From positions 1 through 24,912 of the forward strand of contig JAEOSP010000034.1 in assembly GCA_016840305.1 (NCBI GenBank): a stretch of DNA of 24,912 nucleotides, written 5' to 3'. The stretch comes from Candidatus Hodarchaeota archaeon (GTDB taxonomy: Archaea; Asgardarchaeota; Heimdallarchaeia; Hodarchaeales; Hodarchaeaceae). The notes beneath the pieces were generated by a model, which worked only from the letters and a program-made list of their open reading frames with translations, made no database searches and had not been told where the DNA came from. How positions within the stretch are numbered: position 1 is the stretch's first letter; each line of letters starts with the position of its first letter. Positions 6,074 through 17,264 of this stretch are shown piece by piece. The position numbers and the translations under genes were made by a program.

Positions 6074-6589
6074 GTGTCGACGAATAGATCCTTAAAAGTG
6101 GTTATTGCGGGAGAAAAGAGAGTGGGAAAATCTTCACTTGTACATAGATTTATTCATGAACAGTTTCCTTTAAAAGATCTTTATTCTACTATTGGATTCG
6201 ATTTTACCGTTAAAACTGTAACTCTTGATGATGGATCAACAATAAATGTTCATCTTTTTGATTTTGGGGGAGAACCTCGGTTTCGCATGATATTTCTTCA
6301 ATATGCATCTGATTGTGATGGATTAATACTTGCATTTGATCCATCCCGAGAACAAACCTTTACCGCTCTCCACGAATGGATTAATGTATATGGAAGAGTG
6401 GAGGAGAGCGTAAATTTCTTAGTTTCAACAAAAGCCGACCTGGGTGTTTCAATTTCACCCGTTGAAATTAATGAGTTTAGAAATCAGCATCATTTTGATG
6501 AATATTTCGCAACAAGTGCTATTACGGGAAAAAACACTCAAGAACTACTACACAAATTGGTCGTGCGCATTTTAGAAAAACAAAACTAA
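6074..6589 (+). CDS. Divergent Ras-like small GTPase (Gln61 to Glu; atypical G4/G5)
   Basis: A 171-aa single-domain protein. G1 is GEKRVGKS at 13-20, the G2 threonine is T39, and G3 is DFGGE at 63-67. G4 reads TKAD at 119-122 instead of NKxD, and G5 reads SAI at 148-150 instead of SAK. The glutamine that positions the hydrolytic water in Ras/Rab proteins is Glu here, and the base-recognition motifs are weakened. Guanine specificity or intrinsic hydrolysis may therefore differ from textbook Ras. There is no C-terminal cysteine. The start is GTG 6074; no ATG lies before residue 72, and GTGA at 6063-6066 can serve as ribosome site. It follows the coiled-coil gene by about 96 bp and precedes a second GTPase by a very short gap, so it probably belongs to the same transcription unit. 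Confidence 0.88.
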   Translation: MSTNRSLKVVIAGEKRVGKSSLVHRFIHEQFPLKDLYSTIGFDFTVKTVTLDDGSTINVHLFDFGGEPRFRMIFLQYASDCDGLILAFDPSREQTFTALHEWINVYGRVEESVNFLVSTKADLGVSISPVEINEFRNQHHFDEYFATSAITGKNTQELLHKLVVRILEKQN

Positions 6590-6613
6590 CAATCAGTATG
6601 GAAATTGCAATTT

Positions 6614-7177
6614 ATGCCTTCAAGCAAATTTGTTTTTAACCCCAGCGTATTAACGGTTAAGGTAGTAGTAGCTGGACCAGGTGGTGTAGGAAAAACTACA
6701 CTTCTGAAACGTTTGGAAACAAATAATTATATTCCAGCGATCAGCACTGTCGGAGTCAATTTTCTTATCCTTGACCATGAGGTTGGAAAAACAATTTTAC
6801 GAGTTGCTTACTGGGATTATGCAGGAGAAGATCGTTTTAAGTCTCTCTTTCCTGGTTATTGCCAGGGATCCTCCGCTGGAGTCGTTACTTTCGATACGTC
6901 AAGAATTCAAACTCTCTCAGAAATACCAACCTGGTTATCAATGCTTAAACAACACAATGATCCAAATATTCCAGTCATTCTATTAGGAAATAAAATTGAT
7001 ACAATAAAGGAAGAACAAAGAGAAGTAGTTAGAGAAGCGGCCATTAGATTCGTAAAGGAATACAGTTTATCAGGATATTATTTCTGTTCAGCAAAAACTG
7101 GAGAAGGATTAAGCTCCCCATTTGCTCATTTGGGAATTCTGATAATTGAAGATCATAAAAAGAAAAATCCCTCTTAG
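6614..7177 (+). CDS. Divergent Ras-like small GTPase (Gln61 to Glu)
   Basis: A 187-aa GTPase. Numbered from ATG 6614, G1 is GPGGVGKT at 21-28, the G2 threonine is T45, G3 is DYAGE at 68-72, G4 is NKID at 126-129 and G5 is SAK at 159-161. G4 and G5 are canonical, but Glu replaces the catalytic Gln of G3, as in the upstream GTPase. The C-terminal tail is short and lysine-rich, with no prenylation cysteine. An in-frame TTG at 6605 is an alternative start; ATG 6614 is preferred by codon and by distance from the weak GGA upstream. The short gap after the preceding GTPase gene implies co-translation. A pair of GTPases beside a coiled-coil protein suggests a heterodimeric switch or paired sensor arrangement, as in Rag/Gtr or MglA-like systems. 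That comparison is inference. Confidence 0.9.
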   Translation: MPSSKFVFNPSVLTVKVVVAGPGGVGKTTLLKRLETNNYIPAISTVGVNFLILDHEVGKTILRVAYWDYAGEDRFKSLFPGYCQGSSAGVVTFDTSRIQTLSEIPTWLSMLKQHNDPNIPVILLGNKIDTIKEEQREVVREAAIRFVKEYSLSGYYFCSAKTGEGLSSPFAHLGILIIEDHKKKNPS

Positions 7178-7480: not shown

Positions 7481-10400
7481 ATGGTACACATAAAAGAAAT
7501 TCGGATGACTGGTTGGAAGTCATATGGTCCAGGAACAGTCCGAATGCCTCTAGCTAAAGGTTTTACTGTCATTGTGGGGCCGAACGGGAGTGGAAAATCA
7601 AATGCTATAGATGCTGTTAATTTTTGTTTGGGCGCATTATCTAAAAAGAGTATGCGAGCAGATAAGATGATAGGCTTGATTTATAACGGTATTGGAGGCA
7701 GAAAAGCTGCTGATAAAGCATTTGTAGAAATCATTTTTGATAATAATGATTATGCTATACCACTAAAAGAATCAGAAGTTGTAGTAAGCCGCGAACTGAA
7801 ACGAAATGGTTCTGGTACATATCGATTAAATGGAAAAAGAACCACTCGAACAGATATTTTGGATAAATTGCGAATCGCAGGGATAGACGTTATTCACAGT
7901 TATAATATAATCGCTCAAGGTCAGGTTGGCGAAATCGTCGGAATGAATCCCATTGAACGAAGGCAAATGATGGAAAATTTAGCTGGTGTTGGTCAGTTTG
8001 ATGAAAAAAAGAAATCAGCCCTATCAGAACTTGAAGAAGCAAATAAGAGAATGGATGAACTTCAACTTCTCGTTAACGAGATAGCAAAGCGTGTTGAGTC
8101 ATTAAGAAAGGAAAAGGAAGATGCCGAACGCTGGAGTCAACTAGATAACGAAGTACTTCAACTCAAAGCCCTTCTTATCTCATACTCTTATCATACTAAT
8201 AATAAATCCCTTGAAAAGTTTGATGAAGATATTAATTCAATAAGAGACACTCAGGAGCAGCTGGTTACAGAAAGATCGCAAATCGATTCGAATGTAAATG
8301 AAGTTAATGAGAAAGTCAGAACAATCGAGGATTCATTAATTAGGGTTGAAACTTCATTAAAAGAAATAAGAACATCCGCAGAAGAAAAGAACATAGAAAA
8401 AACTAAAGTTCATGAGAAAGCTGAATATAATAAGAAAACGGTTAAATCTAACCATAATAGAGTTACACAATTACAAACTAGACTAACAGAGATTCAAAAT
8501 AAGATTGAAGGGGATTCTCAAACTAGAGATGAGCTGAATGAAAAACGTAGGGAACTGGATGGTAAAATTAAAGAAATTCAGGAAGAACGAACAGCTCTAG
8601 AAGAAGAACTTGAGTTAAAGAATCAAGAATATGATGAGATCAAGGTAGAATTTGAGGATGCTGAAAGAAGGTACAAAAACGAAAGCAGTCGTTTAACCAA
8701 AACGCAAGTGTCTTTCGAGGTATCGAATGAAACTGTCAAAGCATTGCAAAACAATGTTAATGAGTATGACAGACGCAAAACTGAAGCAAAGAACCAGATA
8801 AGTGAATCAGAATCAAGAGCTGAAGAATTAAAGACTCGCATTGAAGAAGAAAGTACTCAACAGACAGAAGCGACCTCAAAATTATCTGATATCGAAGAGA
8901 AAAAGGAATCCATTGAATCGAAAATACTTACTCTCGAGGAGAAGATCAGAGATTTAAGTGACAAGCAACTCGTTCTCAAGGCGAAAATTGATACTATTTC
9001 ATCTTTTGTTAAATCGGAAGGAGGAAAAGAAAATCCAGCAGTTTCTTTCATAAGTAAAATGAAGAACGAAGGAGAAATACAGGGTATCTTGGGGGAATTT
9101 CAGAATATGTCAGAAGGATCAGTCACTATTCCTCCTGATATTGGACATCTTTCTGATGCAATAATTACAGAAACAATTGACACTAGTTTAGAGTGTATAC
9201 AGATCCTGAAGGATAATAATGTTGGAGCTGCAAACTTCATTCCTCTAGAGAAGTTTAAACTTAAATCCAGTGATGATTTCTCAAAAATAATACAAAAAGT
9301 GCGTGAACAAAACCAAGTTGTATCCTCATTAAAAGAAGCAGGTCAACAATGGAAAAAACACGGATCTACAATTACTACTGCAGATGGGGACATTTTTAAC
9401 TCAAATGGAACCATATATGGTGGATTTCATCTAGTATCAGCTCAAGCTTCTGTAGAAGCACTACAGACAGAAATGGAAGATATCACGACTCAACTAAATC
9501 AGTTAAATGAAGAATTCAAGCAAGAAAAAGAAAATCAGAAGAAATTACTACAAATAGAAAAGGTCATTGTAACATCCATCGAAAAGCTAGTTAAAAGCAT
9601 TCAGGGGGCAACTCTTCAACTTAATCAGCAGGAAAATGAAATTAAGCTTTATACAGAGAATTCAGAAAGTATCGATCGTGAATTGGATCCTTTAAAGCAA
9701 AATCTTGAGGAGCGGAAACTTGATCGTGATCGACAAAAAGAAGAACTTGAAGCACATGAAACGAATATCGAGATACTTGATGAAGAGGTAAAAAGTGTTG
9801 AAGAACGATTAAATGCTGCTGATACACGTCCTCTTTTAGAAAAGATGAACCAGATTGAGCAAAGACTTGGGAAAATGCAGGGAAAATTGACGGGTATTGA
9901 TTCCCGAATTGAGAGTTTAGATAGCCAGAAAGAAGAGAGAAAGACGCGTTATAGTGAAACCGAAGTAGAAATTAATTCAATAAATGTAGAAACATCAAAC
10001 TTAGAAGGGGAAAGTCAGATACTCATTGAACAAGTCGAGCAATTTAATGTAGATTTAGCTAAAATTCTTGAGAATGAAGAAACACTTGTAACTGAAATCA
10101 AAGATCTTAAATCCGATTTATCTACTCAAAAGAAGTATCAAGGACAATTAGTAAAAGACAAAGATCGTCTCAACGAAAAAATTGCAAAAGATGAAGAGAA
10201 AGTAACTGAGATAAAATTACAAAGAGAGAGAATTGCTGTTGAAACCGAAAAATTAGAGCAAGAAGCACTAGAAGCGCAGATAGAAATCCTTCCTGAAGAT
10301 GCTGAAGAATTAAAGAAAGTAAATGAGCAAAAAATCAATTCGGAGATAAATAGAAAGTCTGATGAGAAAAAAAGACTCGAACCTGTTAATATGCGAGCAC

Positions 10401-11062
10401 TAAAAGAGTTTCAATCTGAAAATTCAAGATATATTGAATTACTTGACCGTAGAGACATTTTAATTGAAGAAAGACAAGTGATTTTAGATTTTATTGAAGA
10501 AATTGAAACCGAGAAGTATTCGGTCTTCATGAAAGTTTACAAATCTGTAAATAAACACTTTGGACTAATATTTAATGAACTCTCAGGGGGAGATGCCCGA
10601 TTAATATTAGAAAAAGACCCAAAGAAGGGAGAAGATATATTCGAGGGTGGTCTATTTATTGAAGCTCATCCAGCAGGTAAGAAAGTTGCATCACTAGAAA
10701 GTATGTCAGGTGGAGAAAAAGCACTTACCGCATTAGCATTCATATTCGCGGTCCAAACAGTGGATGCTCAACCTTTTTACATTTTAGATGAGATAGACGC
10801 AGCACTTGATCCGATGAACGTCCGAAGAGTAGCAAAATTATTAAATAAAATGAGTCGTAGTGTTGGTAGGGAGGAAGGTGAAGACCAGAAAAAATCAAGA
10901 AAATCCTCACCTATGGCCCAATTTCTTGTAATCAGTCACCGAGATATTTTAATGGCCTGGGCAGACAGACTATACGGATGCACGAATGTAAAAGGCCTGA
11001 GCTCAGTCTTTTCTATCCAAATGAGTGAAGATATGCAATTAGAAAGGGATCAGACTTTTTAA
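7481..11062 (+). CDS. smc: Chromosome segregation ATPase SMC
   Basis: A 1193-aa SMC protein, the core of the condensin-like complex that compacts and individualises chromosomes. The N-terminal head has Walker A GPNGSGKS at 33-40 and a Q-loop at about 146-148 (AQGQVGEI). A first coiled-coil arm spans about 165-510 and the hinge about 515-650, with a glycine-rich end (NGTIYGG). The second arm spans about 655-1020. The C-terminal head has the ABC signature SGGEK at 1076-1080, Walker B ILDE ending at D1103-E1104, D-loop ALDPMN, and switch His at 1153. Length and order match full-length archaeal and bacterial SMC. A charged insert of about 18 residues (1127-1144) lies between D-loop and switch His, where bacterial SMCs are shorter. 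It starts at ATG 7481 with GAGG upstream and is followed within 27 bp by scpA, so the two form an operon. Confidence 0.97.
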   Translation: MVHIKEIRMTGWKSYGPGTVRMPLAKGFTVIVGPNGSGKSNAIDAVNFCLGALSKKSMRADKMIGLIYNGIGGRKAADKAFVEIIFDNNDYAIPLKESEVVVSRELKRNGSGTYRLNGKRTTRTDILDKLRIAGIDVIHSYNIIAQGQVGEIVGMNPIERRQMMENLAGVGQFDEKKKSALSELEEANKRMDELQLLVNEIAKRVESLRKEKEDAERWSQLDNEVLQLKALLISYSYHTNNKSLEKFDEDINSIRDTQEQLVTERSQIDSNVNEVNEKVRTIEDSLIRVETSLKEIRTSAEEKNIEKTKVHEKAEYNKKTVKSNHNRVTQLQTRLTEIQNKIEGDSQTRDELNEKRRELDGKIKEIQEERTALEEELELKNQEYDEIKVEFEDAERRYKNESSRLTKTQVSFEVSNETVKALQNNVNEYDRRKTEAKNQISESESRAEELKTRIEEESTQQTEATSKLSDIEEKKESIESKILTLEEKIRDLSDKQLVLKAKIDTISSFVKSEGGKENPAVSFISKMKNEGEIQGILGEFQNMSEGSVTIPPDIGHLSDAIITETIDTSLECIQILKDNNVGAANFIPLEKFKLKSSDDFSKIIQKVREQNQVVSSLKEAGQQWKKHGSTITTADGDIFNSNGTIYGGFHLVSAQASVEALQTEMEDITTQLNQLNEEFKQEKENQKKLLQIEKVIVTSIEKLVKSIQGATLQLNQQENEIKLYTENSESIDRELDPLKQNLEERKLDRDRQKEELEAHETNIEILDEEVKSVEERLNAADTRPLLEKMNQIEQRLGKMQGKLTGIDSRIESLDSQKEERKTRYSETEVEINSINVETSNLEGESQILIEQVEQFNVDLAKILENEETLVTEIKDLKSDLSTQKKYQGQLVKDKDRLNEKIAKDEEKVTEIKLQRERIAVETEKLEQEALEAQIEILPEDAEELKKVNEQKINSEINRKSDEKKRLEPVNMRALKEFQSENSRYIELLDRRDILIEERQVILDFIEEIETEKYSVFMKVYKSVNKHFGLIFNELSGGDARLILEKDPKKGEDIFEGGLFIEAHPAGKKVASLESMSGGEKALTALAFIFAVQTVDAQPFYILDEIDAALDPMNVRRVAKLLNKMSRSVGREEGEDQKKSRKSSPMAQFLVISHRDILMAWADRLYGCTNVKGLSSVFSIQMSEDMQLERDQTF

Positions 11063-11089: not shown

Positions 11090-11968
11090 ATGATGGCTGA
11101 ATCAGAAGTACAACAGGATAGTGACTCATCAGATGATGAAGAAACTGATGAGTATATTCGGCTATTCAGCCACCGAGAACAATTTTTTCTTGAAGAACCC
11201 TATGTTTACTTAATTAATCCAGATCTTTTTCCTGAAAAAGTTCGTTTTATAAAAGAATTTCAGTTGAAAGAGATTCTACCTGACTTTTATGGCAAATTGC
11301 TAGACCAAGGGTTAGATTTTAGGATCTTAGGTCAAGCAATTTATAGTGCAGCAAGGATTCACAAGAAAAAGGTAAGCTTGGCTCTCCAATACGAGAAAAA
11401 GCAGGAAGAAAAAATTGCTATTAGAACTAAACGTAGAGCATTCCAATTCAAAATTCCTTTGGCTTATTATATTACTAGAGAAATCCTATCACTTGCAGAA
11501 AGTGCAAATCCTGAAGAGTTTTATGCAGAGCTTCTACTAGCTCTTCAAGAAGAAGACGAGAAAAAGAAAATTGAAAAATTGAAAGAGGAGAGGAATAAAC
11601 AGCAGGGTACCGCAGAAACGACACGTAAAAGGCGAAAATTGGAACTTGCTGATTTTGAAGGGTTTGATTATGAGCTAGATTTGGACAGGGTAGCAATAGA
11701 GGATATTGTAAATAATACCTTTGACATAATAAAAACTCTTGCGGACAAAGATAAAAATAAAGAGGCAGAATTTTCAAAAGTCGTCAATAGCATGGGAGCT
11801 CAGGAAGGATCAGAGGAACACAAAAGGTTAACTCGTGCTAGAGTACTAATTTCCCTTCTGTACCTCTTTAGAGATGAAAAAATTACAGCTGAACAAGAAT
11901 TACATCCACCTTACGAGATATATATTCAAATTTTTAAGAAAGGAAAAAAGAAGAAGAATGAAGAGTGA
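11090..11968 (+). CDS. scpA: Kleisin ScpA (segregation and condensation protein A)
   Basis: A 292-aa kleisin that bridges the two SMC heads and recruits the KITE (ScpB) subunits. After an acidic N-terminal tail (about 1-25), the helical N-terminal domain (about 28-100) carries the ScpA pattern: hydrophobic start, KEILPDFYGKLL, then LGQAIYSAARIH. This domain contacts the SMC neck. The middle is a Lys/Glu-rich linker (about 100-200). The C-terminal winged helix (about 245-285) has the typical RARVLISLLYLF...ITAEQ pattern that binds the SMC cap, followed by a lysine-rich tail. It is somewhat longer than many archaeal ScpA proteins because of the charged linker. The start is ATG 11090, immediately followed by a second ATG; either could be used. 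It lies 27 bp after smc and converges tightly (7 bp) on the coiled-coil TrmB gene. Confidence 0.88.
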   Translation: MMAESEVQQDSDSSDDEETDEYIRLFSHREQFFLEEPYVYLINPDLFPEKVRFIKEFQLKEILPDFYGKLLDQGLDFRILGQAIYSAARIHKKKVSLALQYEKKQEEKIAIRTKRRAFQFKIPLAYYITREILSLAESANPEEFYAELLLALQEEDEKKKIEKLKEERNKQQGTAETTRKRRKLELADFEGFDYELDLDRVAIEDIVNNTFDIIKTLADKDKNKEAEFSKVVNSMGAQEGSEEHKRLTRARVLISLLYLFRDEKITAEQELHPPYEIYIQIFKKGKKKKNEE

Positions 11969-11975
11969 TTATTAT

Positions 11976-14375
11976 TTATAATCCCACTTCAGCTCGAGGT
12001 ATTTCTTGAGATCTTGCTAAGAAATAGTCTCCTAGTACTATTTTACCCATTAATACTATGAAGCTATCAGCTAGACTCGCTATTGCAATTGTTTCCCCTT
12101 TATCCTCTTTTACTCCGATAATAACTTCTTCACCATCACGATCAGCAGCAAGATATCCTTCAATACTTCCCGCTTTAGCCACATCTACTTTTCTCACACG
12201 AACATTCGGTTTCTGTAAAAGTTTCTTCAGGAGATCTTTATTTGTCTCAGGATCAAGTACACTGACTAGATTAATTCTCTGGTGATTTTTTGTTGCTAAA
12301 ATAGAATCCAACGGGATATCCTCAATTGAAGGAACCAGCAGCGTCATTCCACCCTTTAATCTAGTGAACATACCTTCTATGTACTGTAAAGTGGCCTCTT
12401 TTGATAAAATGGGTGCTGTTTGTATATCAGGAGCGGGATTTTCTGTAACTAATGATGCTAGCTTTTCTAATGAAAAGAGATAGTTTTTGAGTGCCTCATC
12501 GTTCTTTTTAGAAACGTCATCGAACTTTAAAGCATAGTCTTTCATTTCATTCTCCAATGTAGACATTTCTGTTTGCATACTGTCTGAAATAAGCTGATTA
12601 GTTGCAGAAAGCTGGTGATCAGCGGCTTTAGTCATCTCACTCAGAACAGAGACCACTTTTTCTTGCAAACTACGAGTTTTTGTGATGAGGCCTTCTGAAG
12701 CTTTTGTACTTGATTCTATTAAGATATCTCCGTACTTTTCATCGTACTTTTGAACCATATCAGTCATTTCAGCAATCGAATTCTGTACTCCTTCCTTCAA
12801 AGTGCTAATATCTAGTTTTACTTTATCACTCAACTCTTTATTCCTAGTAAGAACTTCCGTTTTAAAAATCTCTAGCTGTTGAGTAAAATTATTAAGGGAT
12901 TGATTCTGGGATGCTTTGAATTCCGAACTGAATTTCGTAAACTCCTCTTTCAATCCGTTTTCTTGAGGTGCCAGAGCTGTTTCAAAGTTTTTCATATGTG
13001 ATTGAATTTCTTGTCTTAAAGACTCGATTGATTGATTGAGACTTTTGGTGGTTAACCCTTTAACCGTATCGATTTTATTCGTACTTTCGTTTTTGAATTC
13101 TTCAAATTGCTTGGTAAGTTCAGTTGAAACGTTCTGGTGAGTTACGCTAGCTTTATCAGCGAGATTCGTTAAAACACCTTCGGAGTTTTTCAAGACATTT
13201 TGGAAATCAGTATCTACCTGGGTTCTCATTGTTTCAGAAAACTGATTTAAAGAACTACCTACCTGTGTTTTTGCTTCACCAAGCCTTTGAGTCACCGTTG
13301 TCTGTGCTTGCTCAAACATTTCAGTTATTTGATTTTGTGCACCTGTTAGGATCTCATCAATTGTTTGTTGTATCTTCTCTGAACTCCCAAAAGATTGAGT
13401 TGAAATTGTATCCTTAGAGGCTTCTAGAGTTGTCTTTGTCTCATTTTTTGTTGATTCTAACTCTTTACTGAGTTCAGCATGATAAGTATCTATGGAAGTA
13501 GTTAAACTAGCTTTACTACTTTCACTTGTAGTCTCAATACTGGTTGTTAATCCAGTGACAGTTTCTGATATCTGATTTTCAAACATCTCATTTTGCTTAT
13601 TAATTGAATTTAAAAGTGTTTGTCCAGTATTCTGTAACGACTCACGAATTAATTGAACACCTTGAACTAAATCATCTTCTGATTTAGTAATAAGCATTTG
13701 AGCATCAGTATCAGATTGCTGATTTCGATTAGTTTCAGTATTTTTAAGTTCCTCAAGACCTTGACCATACACAGCTTCTAAATCTTGATTAATTGCCTGA
13801 AATTTTTCATTGAATGTATCTGTTTTTTGATTGAATGCGGATCCGACATTTGTTAGCAGTGTTTGATGTTCTTCTTGTTTTAGCTTTATTGTTTCCTTCA
13901 GAGTTTCTTGAGCTTTACCATTTTCTTGTTCAACTTCGAGAACGTTCTTCGCTGTAAGTTCCTCAATATTATTTTCAGCTTTTGTCTCCAATTGGTCAAT
14001 TTCTGTCTTTGCTTTTGTTAAAGCATTACTCATTCGCTCAGATTCTTCTCGCATTGTAGATAGGATAGTTTCTAGTTTCTTCGAGATATGTTCATCTAAT
14101 TGAGAAGCAAGAGCTTCCATTTGAGAAATCGTTTTTTCCCCCTCCTGCTTTAATTCTCGAAAAGGAAGTATTGCATGATATCGGTTTGCAATACCTTGGA
14201 TCTCATGAATATATCCTTTTTTCTTTAACCCTTCCAGACTTTTTTCTATGTCAGCCGATACGACTCCTGAATTCTTAATAAGCTCGCCTATACTTTGCGG
14301 ACCATTCGCTAGTAGAATTATATATAATTTACTTTCTTGAAAATCTAGATTTAATGATTCCAGTCCCAAACTCAT
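11976..14375 (-). CDS. TrmB-like winged-helix protein with giant coiled-coil insertion
   Basis: A 799-aa protein. Residues 1-70 form a TrmB-type winged helix (short helix, then YIILLANGPQSIGELIKNSG, then EKSLEGLKKKGYIHE), normally DNA-binding. Residues about 75-640 are a continuous Ser/Thr/Gln/Asn/Glu-rich coiled coil with no membrane segment. Residues about 655-799 resemble the PLD-like C-terminal effector domain of TrmB regulators (YIEGMFTRLKGGMTLLVP, later DRDGEEVIIGV and AIASL). Ordinary TrmB proteins are roughly 250-350 aa with only a short coiled coil, so this is a very large expansion. The start ATG 14375 has a good AGGTGA ribosome site five bases upstream. The gene lies on the opposite strand between scpA and the two scpB genes, so a role in chromosome structure is possible but unproven. 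It could equally be a regulator whose coiled coil senses or assembles. Confidence 0.82.
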   Translation of the reverse strand: MSLGLESLNLDFQESKLYIILLANGPQSIGELIKNSGVVSADIEKSLEGLKKKGYIHEIQGIANRYHAILPFRELKQEGEKTISQMEALASQLDEHISKKLETILSTMREESERMSNALTKAKTEIDQLETKAENNIEELTAKNVLEVEQENGKAQETLKETIKLKQEEHQTLLTNVGSAFNQKTDTFNEKFQAINQDLEAVYGQGLEELKNTETNRNQQSDTDAQMLITKSEDDLVQGVQLIRESLQNTGQTLLNSINKQNEMFENQISETVTGLTTSIETTSESSKASLTTSIDTYHAELSKELESTKNETKTTLEASKDTISTQSFGSSEKIQQTIDEILTGAQNQITEMFEQAQTTVTQRLGEAKTQVGSSLNQFSETMRTQVDTDFQNVLKNSEGVLTNLADKASVTHQNVSTELTKQFEEFKNESTNKIDTVKGLTTKSLNQSIESLRQEIQSHMKNFETALAPQENGLKEEFTKFSSEFKASQNQSLNNFTQQLEIFKTEVLTRNKELSDKVKLDISTLKEGVQNSIAEMTDMVQKYDEKYGDILIESSTKASEGLITKTRSLQEKVVSVLSEMTKAADHQLSATNQLISDSMQTEMSTLENEMKDYALKFDDVSKKNDEALKNYLFSLEKLASLVTENPAPDIQTAPILSKEATLQYIEGMFTRLKGGMTLLVPSIEDIPLDSILATKNHQRINLVSVLDPETNKDLLKKLLQKPNVRVRKVDVAKAGSIEGYLAADRDGEEVIIGVKEDKGETIAIASLADSFIVLMGKIVLGDYFLARSQEIPRAEVGL

Positions 14376-14815: not shown

Positions 14816-15379
14816 ATGGATATTAACTCTTTGAATGAAAAGGATATTATTGAGGCTGCCTTATTTCTATTCGATAGGCCAGTTAGTTTTCAAGAACTCT
14901 CAGAAATAACTCAAACGAGTGAGGGTAAAATTGAAAAATATATTGAGGAAATAAGAGATGAATATTTAGATCAAAATACTGCTTATTATATTGCAGATAT
15001 TGAAGATCAAAAAGTTCAGTTAAAATTACGAGATGAGGTAGCCTTACATCTTCATTGGCCATTTATTAAACGTAGTGAAGTCCCACGACATCTTCTAAAA
15101 GTTCTTAGTCTCATTGCTTTCAAAGAATATGTACTTCAGGAGACAATCAGCCCAAGTAAGATGATTAGAATCTTCGGAAAACCAGTAACTCAAGATATTG
15201 ACGAGTTACAAGCAATGAATTTGTTGAATATTGTCCAAAAAGGAAGTAAAAAAGAAATCACCGTAACAGAGGAATTTCTTACCCTTTTTAAGTTGCCAGA
15301 GGAACCTAAAATGATTAAAAACGCAATCCAAATGGGATTGCGAAATTATGCCTTAAGTCAACTACAATCAAACGAGTGA
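14816..15379 (+). CDS. scpB: ScpB-like KITE protein, first paralogue
   Basis: A 187-aa tandem winged-helix protein of the ScpB/KITE family, which binds the kleisin linker and regulates the SMC ATPase. The N-terminal winged helix (about 4-80) opens with the family pattern KDIIEAALFLFDRPVSFQEL. The second winged helix (about 85-165) shows PRHLLKVLSLIAFKEYV followed by ISPSKMIRIFGKPVTQDIDELQ, matching the ScpB stretch for helix pairing and recognition. Length fits bacterial and archaeal ScpB. It begins at ATG 14816 with GGTG five bases before it, and is followed within 24 bp by a second, longer ScpB-like gene. The pair is probably co-transcribed. Bacterial ScpB acts as a homodimer; the adjacent paralogue suggests a heterodimer here, by analogy with Nse1-Nse3. 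That point is inference. Confidence 0.85.
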   Translation: MDINSLNEKDIIEAALFLFDRPVSFQELSEITQTSEGKIEKYIEEIRDEYLDQNTAYYIADIEDQKVQLKLRDEVALHLHWPFIKRSEVPRHLLKVLSLIAFKEYVLQETISPSKMIRIFGKPVTQDIDELQAMNLLNIVQKGSKKEITVTEEFLTLFKLPEEPKMIKNAIQMGLRNYALSQLQSNE

Positions 15380-15403
15380 AAATGTTAATTTTGAGGTAAT
15401 GAT

Positions 15404-16726
15404 ATGTTTCGTCTGTTCCGTCGTAAAAAAAAGGAAACTTCTGACAAGAAAATTAAGGAAAAGGAAATAAAGGAGGTCTCAAGTGAAACTGAACCTTCAA
15501 ATATCATTTCAGAGGAAACAGAAGAATCTTCAGAACCAATTTTCGAAATTAAGGAAACTCCGTTTGAAGAAAAATTTGGCCAATATGCAAAGATACTCCC
15601 AGAATCGCTCTTGGAAGCTGGAAAAACAGAATTAGATCAACCTAGTATGTTACCTTTTATAGAAACCCTAGTTGATCAAAATGAATCGATTTTCTCTTTT
15701 ATCTCTCCACAAATAATAACGAGGTATTCAGGTACATCTTCTTCGGTATCAGAAATTTTTCCACTATTAAAGAAAGATCTTCCTCCAGTCTCATTAGAGG
15801 AAAGAATAGAAGGAGCACTTTTTGCTATTGGTAGACCTATTCATATTTCTGAAATCATTGATAACTTTGAGGAAGACTCACCTACAATTAAAAGGGCCAT
15901 TCGACGATTAAGCAGGAAGAAAAAACGTGGTTCAGCATTAATCATTCATGAAATATCTAAAGATCGTTGGGTATTACACTTAAACCCAATTTTTCATGAA
16001 TTCTTTCAAGCCCTTGAACCAGATTTATTTTTGTCGACCTCAGAAAGAAGGGTGTTAACAGAGATCTCATATAGGCAACCTATTTCACTTGCACTTGTAA
16101 AGAAAATGGTTACGGGGATTGGACCAATCAAAGTTACTGAAATATGCCAGAAATTAGAAGATAATGGATTTGTGGTTAGTGAGAAGCGAGCACGGTCGTT
16201 AATATATACTTCTACACCGAAATTCGCTCGTGCTTTTGGATTCGATAATGAAAGTCGACGATTGAAGTTACAAATGCTTTGGCGTTTAAAGCGTTTAATG
16301 GGTGACTTTGAAGCAGAGGAACCAGAAGAATTGGACGATGAAAGCTTTGAAGAGCAATTGGATGAGAAAGAGGAAGGGATAGTTCAAGAAGATTCAATTG
16401 AAATTACTCCTGATAAACAAATTGATGAAGAACCAGTAGAGCAAGAACAGAGTCTAGAAAACGAAAAAATTGATCCTCCTATTGATACAACTGCTCCTAC
16501 TAATGAAGATTGGAGAGAATTAGAAGAAACAACATCAGATATCCCTGTTAGTGATTTAGAATTTGACATAACGGAAGAGACTGAATTTCAATCAACTATT
16601 ACTGAAGAAAAGGAAGAAATTTCATCAAATTCAGATTTAATACCTCTTTCGGAAGAATCAGATCAGGACAAAGAAATTGAAGAGATTAATTTCAGTAAAA
16701 ATACAGGAATAAACGAAGAAGAATAG
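15404..16726 (+). CDS. ScpB-like KITE protein, second paralogue with long acidic extensions
   Basis: A 440-aa protein with a ScpB-type core at about 126-295: LEERIEGALFAIGRPIHISE, then a second winged helix with LSTSERRVLTEISYRQPISL and KVTEICQKLEDNGFVV. Sequence and domain order match ScpB. The N-terminal arm (about 1-125) starts with a cluster of basic residues (RLFRRKKKE) and then becomes acidic. The C-terminal arm (about 300-440) is extremely Glu/Asp/Ser-rich and probably disordered. Such tails are absent from typical ScpB (about 170-250 aa). It follows scpB1 by 24 bp and converges on the GTPase gene at 16740. Likely role: partner KITE subunit of the same SMC-kleisin complex. The tails could recruit basic, DNA-associated proteins or regulate DNA access; this is inference. 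Confidence 0.8.
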   Translation: MFRLFRRKKKETSDKKIKEKEIKEVSSETEPSNIISEETEESSEPIFEIKETPFEEKFGQYAKILPESLLEAGKTELDQPSMLPFIETLVDQNESIFSFISPQIITRYSGTSSSVSEIFPLLKKDLPPVSLEERIEGALFAIGRPIHISEIIDNFEEDSPTIKRAIRRLSRKKKRGSALIIHEISKDRWVLHLNPIFHEFFQALEPDLFLSTSERRVLTEISYRQPISLALVKKMVTGIGPIKVTEICQKLEDNGFVVSEKRARSLIYTSTPKFARAFGFDNESRRLKLQMLWRLKRLMGDFEAEEPEELDDESFEEQLDEKEEGIVQEDSIEITPDKQIDEEPVEQEQSLENEKIDPPIDTTAPTNEDWRELEETTSDIPVSDLEFDITEETEFQSTITEEKEEISSNSDLIPLSEESDQDKEIEEINFSKNTGINEEE

Positions 16727-16739
16727 TTTTCAAAGGAAT

Positions 16740-17264
16740 TTATTTAAACAAATCGAAATTGTTCTTTATCAAGTCTGTATATATCTTAGGAATTAATTCT
16801 CCTCCTAGTTTTGCTGAACATTCATAAAATGGAATTCCATATGAGTCCGCTAAGGTTTGACCTTCTTTTGTTGAGACAGCTCTTTGATCCTCCAAATCAA
16901 TTTTATTGCCAATAAGGACTAAAGGCTTGTCATCACCCCTAACGCTTTTGTAATCAGCTACCCAATGTTCAACAGAGTCAAAAGTATCACGTCTCGTTAT
17001 ATCATAAATGACCAAACATCCTACAGAACCTTCATAATAGAATCTACGAAGTCTACCAAAGACTTCCTGTCCTGCAGTATCGTGTAATATTAGTTTCACT
17101 TGCTGATTATTAACAGTTATTAATTTTGATGTAATATCAACCCCAATTGTTGGCATGTAATTTGAAGAGAAAGTTCCCTCAGCATATCGTCTAATCAGAG
17201 ACGTTTTTCCAACCTGATACGACCCTGAAGAGCATATTTTCAGAACATACTTATCCCGCATCAT
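16740..17264 (-). CDS. Rab-like small GTPase
   Basis: A 174-aa single-domain GTPase with canonical motifs: G1 GSYQVGKT at 14-21, G2 T39 in MPTIGVD, G3 DTAGQ at 62-66 with the catalytic Gln, G4 NKID at 120-123, and G5 SAK at 150-152. The YDITRRDTF and FYYEGSVG segments are very like eukaryotic Rab/Ras proteins. There is no C-terminal cysteine, so membrane attachment by prenylation is not expected. It starts at ATG 17264 (a second ATG follows at once) with AGGGG upstream. It converges on the acidic ScpB gene with 13 bp between them and is divergent from the ferredoxin oxidoreductase operon. Nothing in the context reveals its target. Confidence 0.93.
   Translation of the reverse strand: MMRDKYVLKICSSGSYQVGKTSLIRRYAEGTFSSNYMPTIGVDITSKLITVNNQQVKLILHDTAGQEVFGRLRRFYYEGSVGCLVIYDITRRDTFDSVEHWVADYKSVRGDDKPLVLIGNKIDLEDQRAVSTKEGQTLADSYGIPFYECSAKLGGELIPKIYTDLIKNNFDLFK

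What the first reader, a model, noticed from the sequence alone, without database searches (positions are those of the whole stretch)
14816..16726. Two tandem, non-identical ScpB/KITE proteins in one SMC locus
Both products carry the two-winged-helix ScpB pattern, yet they differ in sequence and length (187 and 440 aa). Bacterial ScpB is a homodimer, whereas the eukaryotic SMC5/6 complex uses a KITE heterodimer (Nse1-Nse3). An Asgard SMC complex with two co-encoded KITE paralogues could use an obligate heterodimer and be informative about how the eukaryotic arrangement arose. The duplication is seen in the sequence; heterodimerisation is inference.
Basis: partly seen in the sequence, partly recalled or inferred. 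Interest (0 to 1): 0.7.

Follow-up and report, generated by a model that had tools for sequence, protein, structure and literature searches.

The report
Archaeal SMC complex with two ScpBs
An Asgard archaeon from a group that some studies place next to eukaryotes carries, near its chromosome-organising SMC and kleisin genes, two very different ScpB-type partner genes side by side, a conserved arrangement suggesting that its SMC complex may use an unequal pair of partners where bacteria use two identical ones.

Summary
Observation confirmed. Window 14816-15379 (187 aa, "S") and 15404-16726 (440 aa, "L") both match the whole ScpB domain (PF04079, E 8e-18 and 1e-16) yet share 17% identity. They follow SMC and a 292-aa protein that Pfam misses but that is an ScpA-type kleisin by profile and position. 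S-type and L-type proteins occur in 13 of 14 held genomes of the order, Hodarchaeales by inference; S lies directly upstream of L in all 11 of 12 named loci that reach that far. In three divergent loci SMC-kleisin-S-L stand in one row. A related kleisin/ScpB/ScpB/SMC set occurs in 3 of 4 genomes of an order outside that class; its second ScpB and (two genomes) its SMC group with those of Hodarchaeales. Of the 150 other ScpB-positive Asgard genomes, 122 list one match. Best reading: a four-subunit SMC complex whose kleisin carries an S-L KITE heterodimer. Complex membership is likely; heterodimerisation is inference: a fused-chain AlphaFold2 model did not place S against L (pTM 0.30). Nothing found ties S or L specifically to eukaryotic Nse1/Nse3.

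The parts
7481..11062 (+). SMC ATPase, 1193 aa
   Evidence: TIGR02168 E 3.7e-171, above its cut-off (571.5 vs 567.35 bits); TIGR02169 E 3.4e-187, below its cut-off; PF02463 E 4.2e-45; relatives at the same place in related loci
11090..11968 (+). ScpA-type kleisin, 292 aa, missed by Pfam/NCBIfam
11976..14375 (-). Opposite-strand gene, 799 aa: TrmB-like HTH plus long coiled coil, between kleisin and ScpB-S in the core Hodarchaeales loci
   Evidence: PF01978 E 4.2e-10; relatives upstream of S in L002-L006 and L008-L012 and in L007; not between kleisin and S in L114-L116
14816..15379 (+). ScpB-S: minimal tandem-winged-helix KITE-type protein, 187 aa, acidic
   Evidence: PF04079 E 7.9e-18; 6juv E 1.8e-16; model pLDDT mostly 79-92 with a dip to 56-59 at residues 71-90; net charge -8
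15380..15403 (+). 24-nt gap between the two ScpB genes (GAGGT before the second ATG is seen in the sequence)
15404..16726 (+). ScpB-L: KITE-type protein with long extensions, 440 aa
   Evidence: PF04079 E 9.7e-17, TIGR00281 E 1.6e-13 but below its cut-off; 6juv E 2.2e-12
15404..15433 (+). Conserved basic/aromatic N-terminus of ScpB-L (MFRLFRRKKK), function unknown
   Evidence: M1 F2 R3 F5 R6 R7 K10 at 90% or more in 25 aligned sequences; similar starts in the divergent G053 and G054 proteins
15794..16303 (+). ScpB core of L (residues 131-300), basic (net +10), ending in the conserved helix ESRRLKLQMLWRLKRLMG
16304..16723 (+). Acidic tail of ScpB-L (net -48), variable in length and absent from the G053 relative

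Best explanation
This is the gene set of a four-subunit prokaryotic SMC complex: an SMC homodimer, an ScpA-type kleisin, and two diverged ScpB-type KITE subunits, S and L, made from adjacent genes. As in Smc-ScpAB, the kleisin N-terminal helices would bind one SMC neck and its C-terminal winged helix the other SMC head, while its conserved middle segment carries a KITE dimer. The most likely dimer is one S with one L, through the N-terminal winged helices as in ScpB dimers (interface recalled). In this species L, with its basic core and basic N-terminus, would be the DNA-gripping half and S, acidic, the structural half, as Nse3 outweighs Nse1 in Smc5/6. SHOWN: family membership of the four proteins, gene adjacency, conservation of the pair, and that the two are old paralogues. 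INFERRED: that they form one complex, the S-L heterodimer, and the division of labour.
For: Both proteins are ScpB-family; the 292-aa protein is a kleisin by profile and position, with weaker fold support. Pair conserved: S-type profile in 13 of 14 genomes of the order, L-type in the same 13; G051 lacks both. S lies directly upstream of L in 11 of 12 named loci, the twelfth (L001) starting 69 nt before L. By mechanical ORF starts the S-L gap is 16-34 nt in 14 of 15 loci counted and a 41-nt overlap in one. In L114, L115 and L116 the order is SMC-kleisin-S-L. S rows 100/94 and L rows 95/78 each form one side of a branch, and L joins the second ScpB (m) of G080/G082/G083 at 98/97; SMCs of Hodarchaeales and G082/G083 join at SH-aLRT 97 in a quick tree. 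The kleisin middle segment (111-199, my bounds) is about as conserved as the C-terminal domain (0.65 vs 0.65 in nine rows, 0.81 vs 0.80 in six). 12 of 14 genomes of the order list one kleisin match. Charge asymmetry in the core group: S core mean -4.7 (10 rows), L core +9.8 (12 rows).
Against: The fused S-L AlphaFold2 model has pTM 0.30, so no S-L interface was predicted; the alignment was shallow (74 rows) and almost wholly unpaired, and no homodimer control could be run. [quoted passage not shown] The charge asymmetry is weak in the divergent loci (S mean +1.0, L +4.3, 3 rows each) and reversed in the related order (k +10, m +3.7, 3 rows each). In the window the pair is separated from the kleisin by an opposite-strand gene of 2.4 kb and so probably has its own promoter (inference).
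Confidence: 0.6

Rival explanations
1. Two alternative KITE homodimers: S2 and L2 compete for, or take turns on, one kleisin, giving two functional forms of the same SMC complex (for example chromosome segregation and repair).
For: In Smc-ScpAB two ScpB molecules bind one ScpA (PMC7055376 passages) and MukE is a dimeric KITE (PMC10512200 passages). S and L are strongly diverged (17% identity), which also suits separate jobs.
Against: 12 of 14 genomes of the order list one kleisin match and the two genes keep a tight tandem spacing; with separate jobs one of the two might be lost or moved somewhere, yet both occur in the same 13 of 14 genomes. This is circumstantial.
Confidence: 0.2
2. Only one of the two (probably L, which groups with the canonical ScpBs) is an SMC subunit; the other is a DNA-binding or regulatory winged-helix protein that merely travels with it.
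For: Tree: L lies with canonical Asgard ScpBs and m, whereas S and k fall outside them (93/98, unstarred, long branches). Some genes annotated as archaeal ScpB may be unrelated in function (PMC7055376, section 3.1).
Against: S is well conserved (mean pairwise identity 66% in 10 rows; L 48% in 12 rows with its variable tails included), keeps the full ScpB domain, and in L114-L116 sits directly after the kleisin.
Confidence: 0.12
3. Both are remnants of an ancestral Smc-ScpAB that no longer bind the kleisin (binary SMC-kleisin complex, as proposed for many archaea), and do something unrelated.
For: Jeon et al. 2020 (PMC7055376) found no ScpA-ScpB binding in six archaeal pairs.
Against: That paper describes middle regions of 30-66 residues with virtually no homology among archaea; here the middle segment is conserved and about 89 residues by my own bounds, which are not drawn as in that paper. 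The genes stay in the SMC locus.
Confidence: 0.08

Closest known systems
Bacterial Smc-ScpAB (two identical ScpB on ScpA)
   Same: SMC, ScpA-type kleisin and ScpB-domain proteins encoded together; chains of ScpB entries 6juv, 3w6j, 2z99, 1t6s and 4i98 make up the ten best Foldseek rows of the S-L model, aligned on the S half where ranges are given
   Different: Two diverged ScpB genes instead of one; one of them with long basic and acidic extensions; kleisin too diverged for Pfam ScpA
Archaeal SMC-ScpA with a single ScpB (Euryarchaeota; many Asgard genomes)
   Same: Same families; P. yayanosii ScpB 6juv is the best solved-sequence match of both profiles; SMC-ScpA-ScpB rows in single-ScpB Asgard loci such as L033, L034, L054
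   Different: One ScpB match in 122 of the 150 ScpB-positive Asgard genomes outside this order (my count; 28 list two or more), against a tandem S-L pair here
Eukaryotic Smc5/6 with Nse1-Nse3 on Nse4
   Same: Would share the idea of an unequal KITE pair on one kleisin (Nse1-Nse3 pairing recalled; Nse3 doing most of the DNA clamping is from PMC10512200 passages)
   Different: No MAGE or Nse1 family among those listed; 11 of 14 genomes of the order list one SMC match (12 candidates scored per genome), so SMC itself would be a homodimer; S and L are ScpB-type by sequence
MukE / MksE
   Same: KITE superfamily (PMC10512200 passages)
   Different: No MukE match appeared in the families or structure rows listed; this is no exclusion

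Membership tests
ScpB (PF04079) | SMC_ScpB profile match above curated cut-off over both winged helices | tested here: met
   S 65 bits, L 61.4 bits, cut-off 27.4, profile positions 2-152 and 2-153 of 160
ScpB (TIGR00281 equivalog) | Score above the equivalog cut-off 89.2 | tested here: not met
   L 50.7 bits, S no match: ScpB homologues, not ScpB equivalogs by that model
KITE superfamily, S | Tandem winged-helix fold | tested here: met
KITE superfamily, L | Tandem winged-helix fold | tested here: inconclusive
   In the model the first winged helix of L is weak (pLDDT blocks 39-78) and the second (75-89) matches mainly MarR-type winged helices; L rests on the sequence match above
KITE superfamily | Binds the middle of a kleisin as a dimer | not testable with these tools
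   No complex prediction offered; the fused chain gave pTM 0.30
ScpA kleisin (PF02616) | Pfam SMC_ScpA match | tested here: not met
   No match in the window protein nor among the families listed for the 22 aligned sequences; none of the 14 genomes of the order is among the 72 with a match at E 0.01
Kleisin / ScpA (superfamily level) | Homology to ScpA over the whole length | tested here: met
   hhalign probability 98.6, E 5e-16
Kleisin / ScpA (superfamily level) | Kleisin-type C-terminal winged helix | tested here: inconclusive
Smc-ScpAB complex | SMC, kleisin and ScpB genes in one locus | tested here: met
Smc-ScpAB complex | ScpB acts as a homodimer | not testable with these tools
   needs protein biochemistry or multimer prediction
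Smc5/6 Nse1-Nse3 KITEs | Specific sequence or fold similarity to MAGE (Nse3) or Nse1 | tested here: inconclusive
   Neither is among the listed Pfam families (25 of 32 families shown for S); Foldseek E 0.016-0.05 for MAGE/Nse chains, in the range of unrelated winged helices

The most novel reading that the evidence does not exclude
An obligate, asymmetric KITE heterodimer arose by ScpB duplication within Asgard archaea together with its own SMC and kleisin, and the eukaryotic Smc5/6 arrangement (Nse1-Nse3 on Nse4) descends from this lineage of complexes and was not invented within eukaryotes.
Probability: 0.06. Interest if true: 0.95.

Novelty: new variant of a known kind. Interest (0 to 1): 0.6.

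Why it matters
In Smc-ScpAB two copies of one ScpB sit on the kleisin (PMC7055376 passages), while eukaryotic Smc5/6 has two different KITEs, Nse1 and Nse3; how that asymmetry arose is open. A conserved two-ScpB SMC module in Hodarchaeales, the order recovered as sister to eukaryotes under some treatments (correction PMC12960242 to PMC10307638) and contested elsewhere (PMC12395588, start of abstract), would give a concrete, testable prokaryotic case of KITE asymmetry. It would also run against the generalisation that archaeal SMC complexes mostly lack KITEs (PMC7055376, a survey of 640 archaeal genomes). It identifies a kleisin that public sources mostly call hypothetical where they name it. 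Even if S and L form separate homodimers, the module shows KITE diversification within archaea.

Tried and rejected
Frameshift or split gene: rejected, since each ORF has a complete ScpB domain. Recent tandem duplication: rejected, 17% identity and separate clades.

S-L interface by AlphaFold2: the two genes lie in one frame, so the joining stops were read as residues to give one chain. A first 137-row alignment (A4) put the L rows on the S half and was discarded; row sets were tried locally until both families sat on their own halves, and A6 was folded. Mean pLDDT 64.1, pTM 0.30: no S-L placement, which counts neither way. Kleisin model: mean pLDDT 45, usable only for about residues 201-283; its structural matches are tied with unrelated winged helices.

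Specific kinship to Nse1/Nse3: no support. S and k (first ScpB of G080/G082/G083) as one clade: not in the best tree, but not rejected (AU p 0.425, log-likelihood 0.29 lower), so a single old duplication is allowed and not shown. Vertical descent versus transfer of the whole module between the two Asgard groups was not resolved; the SMC of genomes in the same class (G055, G057) falls elsewhere. The SMC of G080 was left out of that tree for lack of shared columns.

Twenty-eight Asgard genomes outside the order also list two or more ScpB matches; the loci of only some were looked at (G062, G080, G082, G083, G087, G089, G090, G091, G159), so other two-ScpB loci may exist. Two-ScpB loci outside Asgard archaea were not surveyed. 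Covariation between S and L was not attempted (too few independent pairs).

Print searches: (combinations of Asgard, ScpB, SMC, kleisin, KITE, Nse1/Nse3, heterodimer, paralogs, ScpB1/ScpB2, hawk, Lokiarchaeota, Promethearchaeota). No title or abstract start listed describes two ScpBs in one archaeal SMC locus. Some lists were capped (15 of 22, 15 of 110, 8 of 39), the library is open-licence PMC only, and most listed papers were seen as listings alone.

Full report
WHAT IS THERE. The window holds, on the + strand, an SMC gene (7481-11062, 1193 aa), a 292-aa gene (11090-11968), then an opposite-strand gene (11976-14375, 799 aa) and two further + genes, S (14816-15379, 187 aa) and L (15404-16726, 440 aa). 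S and L each match Pfam SMC_ScpB over the whole domain (E 7.9e-18 and 9.7e-17). Only L is seen by the narrower NCBIfam ScpB model, and below its cut-off (50.7 against 89.2 bits). Profiles of S and L relatives both find the solved archaeal ScpB 6juv. S and L share 17% of 180 aligned positions.

CONSERVATION OF THE PAIR. A genome scan with the L profile gave 12 named loci, titled Heimdallarchaeota (6), Hodarchaeota (5) or Hodarchaeum mangrovi (1). In 11 of 12 S stands directly upstream of L; in the twelfth (L001) the contig starts 69 nt before L. Of the 14 held genomes in the order of G004 (the genome of L007), 13 have an S match and the same 13 an L match; G051 (1.4 Mb) has SMC and kleisin but neither ScpB, and an ORF just after its kleisin reads partly as X. 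That this order is Hodarchaeales is inferred: G047 holds a contig of the same length as the Hodarchaeum mangrovi record L011. The S-L distance, by mechanical ORF starts, is 16-34 nt in 14 of 15 loci and a 41-nt overlap in one. In addition I matched by hand 28 L and 28 S entries with the same longest-contig length, out of 90 and 60 hits. In L114, L115 and L116 the row is SMC-kleisin-S-L: the opposite-strand gene of the window is a feature of the core group.

WIDER DISTRIBUTION. ScpB (PF04079) occurs in 163 of 227 held genomes of the phylum at E 0.01, 156 over the cut-off; by my count of that table 122 list one match and 41 two or more, the latter being the 13 of the order and 28 others. In the class of G004 (58 genomes) L-type hits occur in 20: the 13 of the order, six weak cross-hits (G055-G058, G061, G063; E 2e-9 to 2e-12), and G062, with a full-length L hit (E 5e-163) on another contig beside its own canonical ScpB, probably contamination. 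SMC was found in 25 of the 58: all 14 of the order, all 9 of G055-G063, and G019 and G020; 33 of the 35 genomes G012-G046 gave no SMC match. Caveats: only 12 candidates were scored per genome; the hinge family PF06470 rang in 1 of 11 of these genomes sampled, but the window's own hinge is itself under that family's cut-off. Outside the class, an order of four genomes (G080-G083) has in three of four a kleisin followed by one ScpB (k) and, about 2.3-2.5 kb on, a second ScpB (m) and then SMC; in G080 a 277-aa ORF lies between m and SMC. Each of these three genomes also has a third ScpB match elsewhere.

HISTORY. In a tree of 74 ScpB rows (189 columns) the S rows form one side of a branch (100/94), the L rows likewise (95/78), and L joins m at 98/97. 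S and k both lie outside the canonical Asgard ScpBs, which group with L and m (93/98); many branches are long. S plus k as one clade is not rejected (AU p 0.425). In an SMC tree of 25 rows (258 columns, quick method) the Hodarchaeales and G082/G083 SMCs form one side of a branch (SH-aLRT 97) against 15 others, including SMCs of the same class. The simplest account is one old module of SMC, kleisin and two ScpBs, inherited or transferred as a unit; this is inference.

HOW IT MAY WORK. The families fix the likely plan (Smc-ScpAB; review PMC10512200, passages): a kleisin bridging two SMC heads and carrying a KITE dimer that helps to clamp DNA. Because S and L occur together in 13 of 14 genomes, in the same order and tightly spaced in the loci seen, a 1:1 KITE dimer is the most economical reading. 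In the core group S is acidic (core mean -4.7, 10 rows) and L basic (+9.8, 12 rows; 34 canonical rows +5.5), which would suit L as the DNA-gripping half, as Nse3 is in Smc5/6; but this split is weak in the divergent loci (+1.0 and +4.3, 3 rows each) and reversed in the G080 order (k +10, m +3.7, 3 rows each), so it may be a local feature. L also has a conserved N-terminus MFRLFRRxKK with similar starts in G053 and G054, and a variable acidic tail. The fused-chain model could not decide the dimer question: S half pLDDT mostly 79-92, first winged helix of L 39-78, second 75-89, linker mostly under 50. Against the whole idea stands the published failure of six archaeal ScpAs to bind their ScpB, and of two longer-middled ones (PMC7055376).

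VERDICT. Observation confirmed; complex membership likely; heterodimer plausible and untested; no specific support for descent of Nse1-Nse3 from S and L. I rate it a new variant of a known kind: a prokaryotic SMC-kleisin complex with two diverged KITE subunits.

PAPERS: PMC7055376 (abstract, section 3.1, passages); PMC5228436 (main text, part 1 of 2); PMC10512200, PMC12993045 and PMC9764264 (passages); PMC12960242 (whole text); PMC10307638 and PMC12872458 (term search: no SMC, ScpB, condensin, cohesin or kleisin in their main texts; one passage on Hodarchaeales in the second); PMC7297730 (start of abstract, term search without hits); PMC12395588 (start of abstract). The Nse1-Nse3 pairing as a heterodimer and the ScpB dimer interface are otherwise recalled.

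Noticed in passing
11976-14375 (-): A 799-aa protein with a TrmB-like HTH and a long coiled coil sits on the opposite strand between kleisin and ScpB-S in the core Hodarchaeales loci; it is not at that place in the more divergent loci L114-L116.
   Followed up: partly
11090-11968 and relatives P0152-P0210: Where sources name relatives of the kleisin they say hypothetical, or leucyl aminopeptidase (2) or YggL-like (1): an annotation gap for a core chromosome protein.
   Followed up: yes
G012-G046 (held genomes of the same class): 33 of 35 genomes gave no SMC match, and ScpB was under the cut-off in 4 of 35 and not found at E 0.01 in 31, so whole Heimdallarchaeia groups may lack a canonical SMC complex.
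   Followed up: partly
15404-15433: Conserved basic/aromatic N-terminus of ScpB-L (MFRLFRRxKK), kept across deep divergence; could be a DNA-, membrane- or partner-binding tag.
   Followed up: no
L118, L119, L120, L121: Four other Asgard genomes carry an SMC gene near a very diverged ScpB-like gene with no recognised kleisin in the stretch fetched: possibly another SMC system.
   Followed up: no
6074-6589, 6605-7177, 16740-17264: Three Ras-like small GTPases flank the SMC locus, and relatives flank it in other Hodarchaeales loci.
   Followed up: no
L123 (G003) and L134 (G062): G003 holds an extra canonical SMC-ScpA-ScpB set on an 8.6-kb contig and G062 an L-type ScpB beside its own ScpB; both may be contamination of metagenome bins.
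   Followed up: partly
L114 (G048): G048 seems to hold two S-L sets, one core type and one very divergent type with its own SMC and kleisin; a true second complex or a mixed bin.
   Followed up: no
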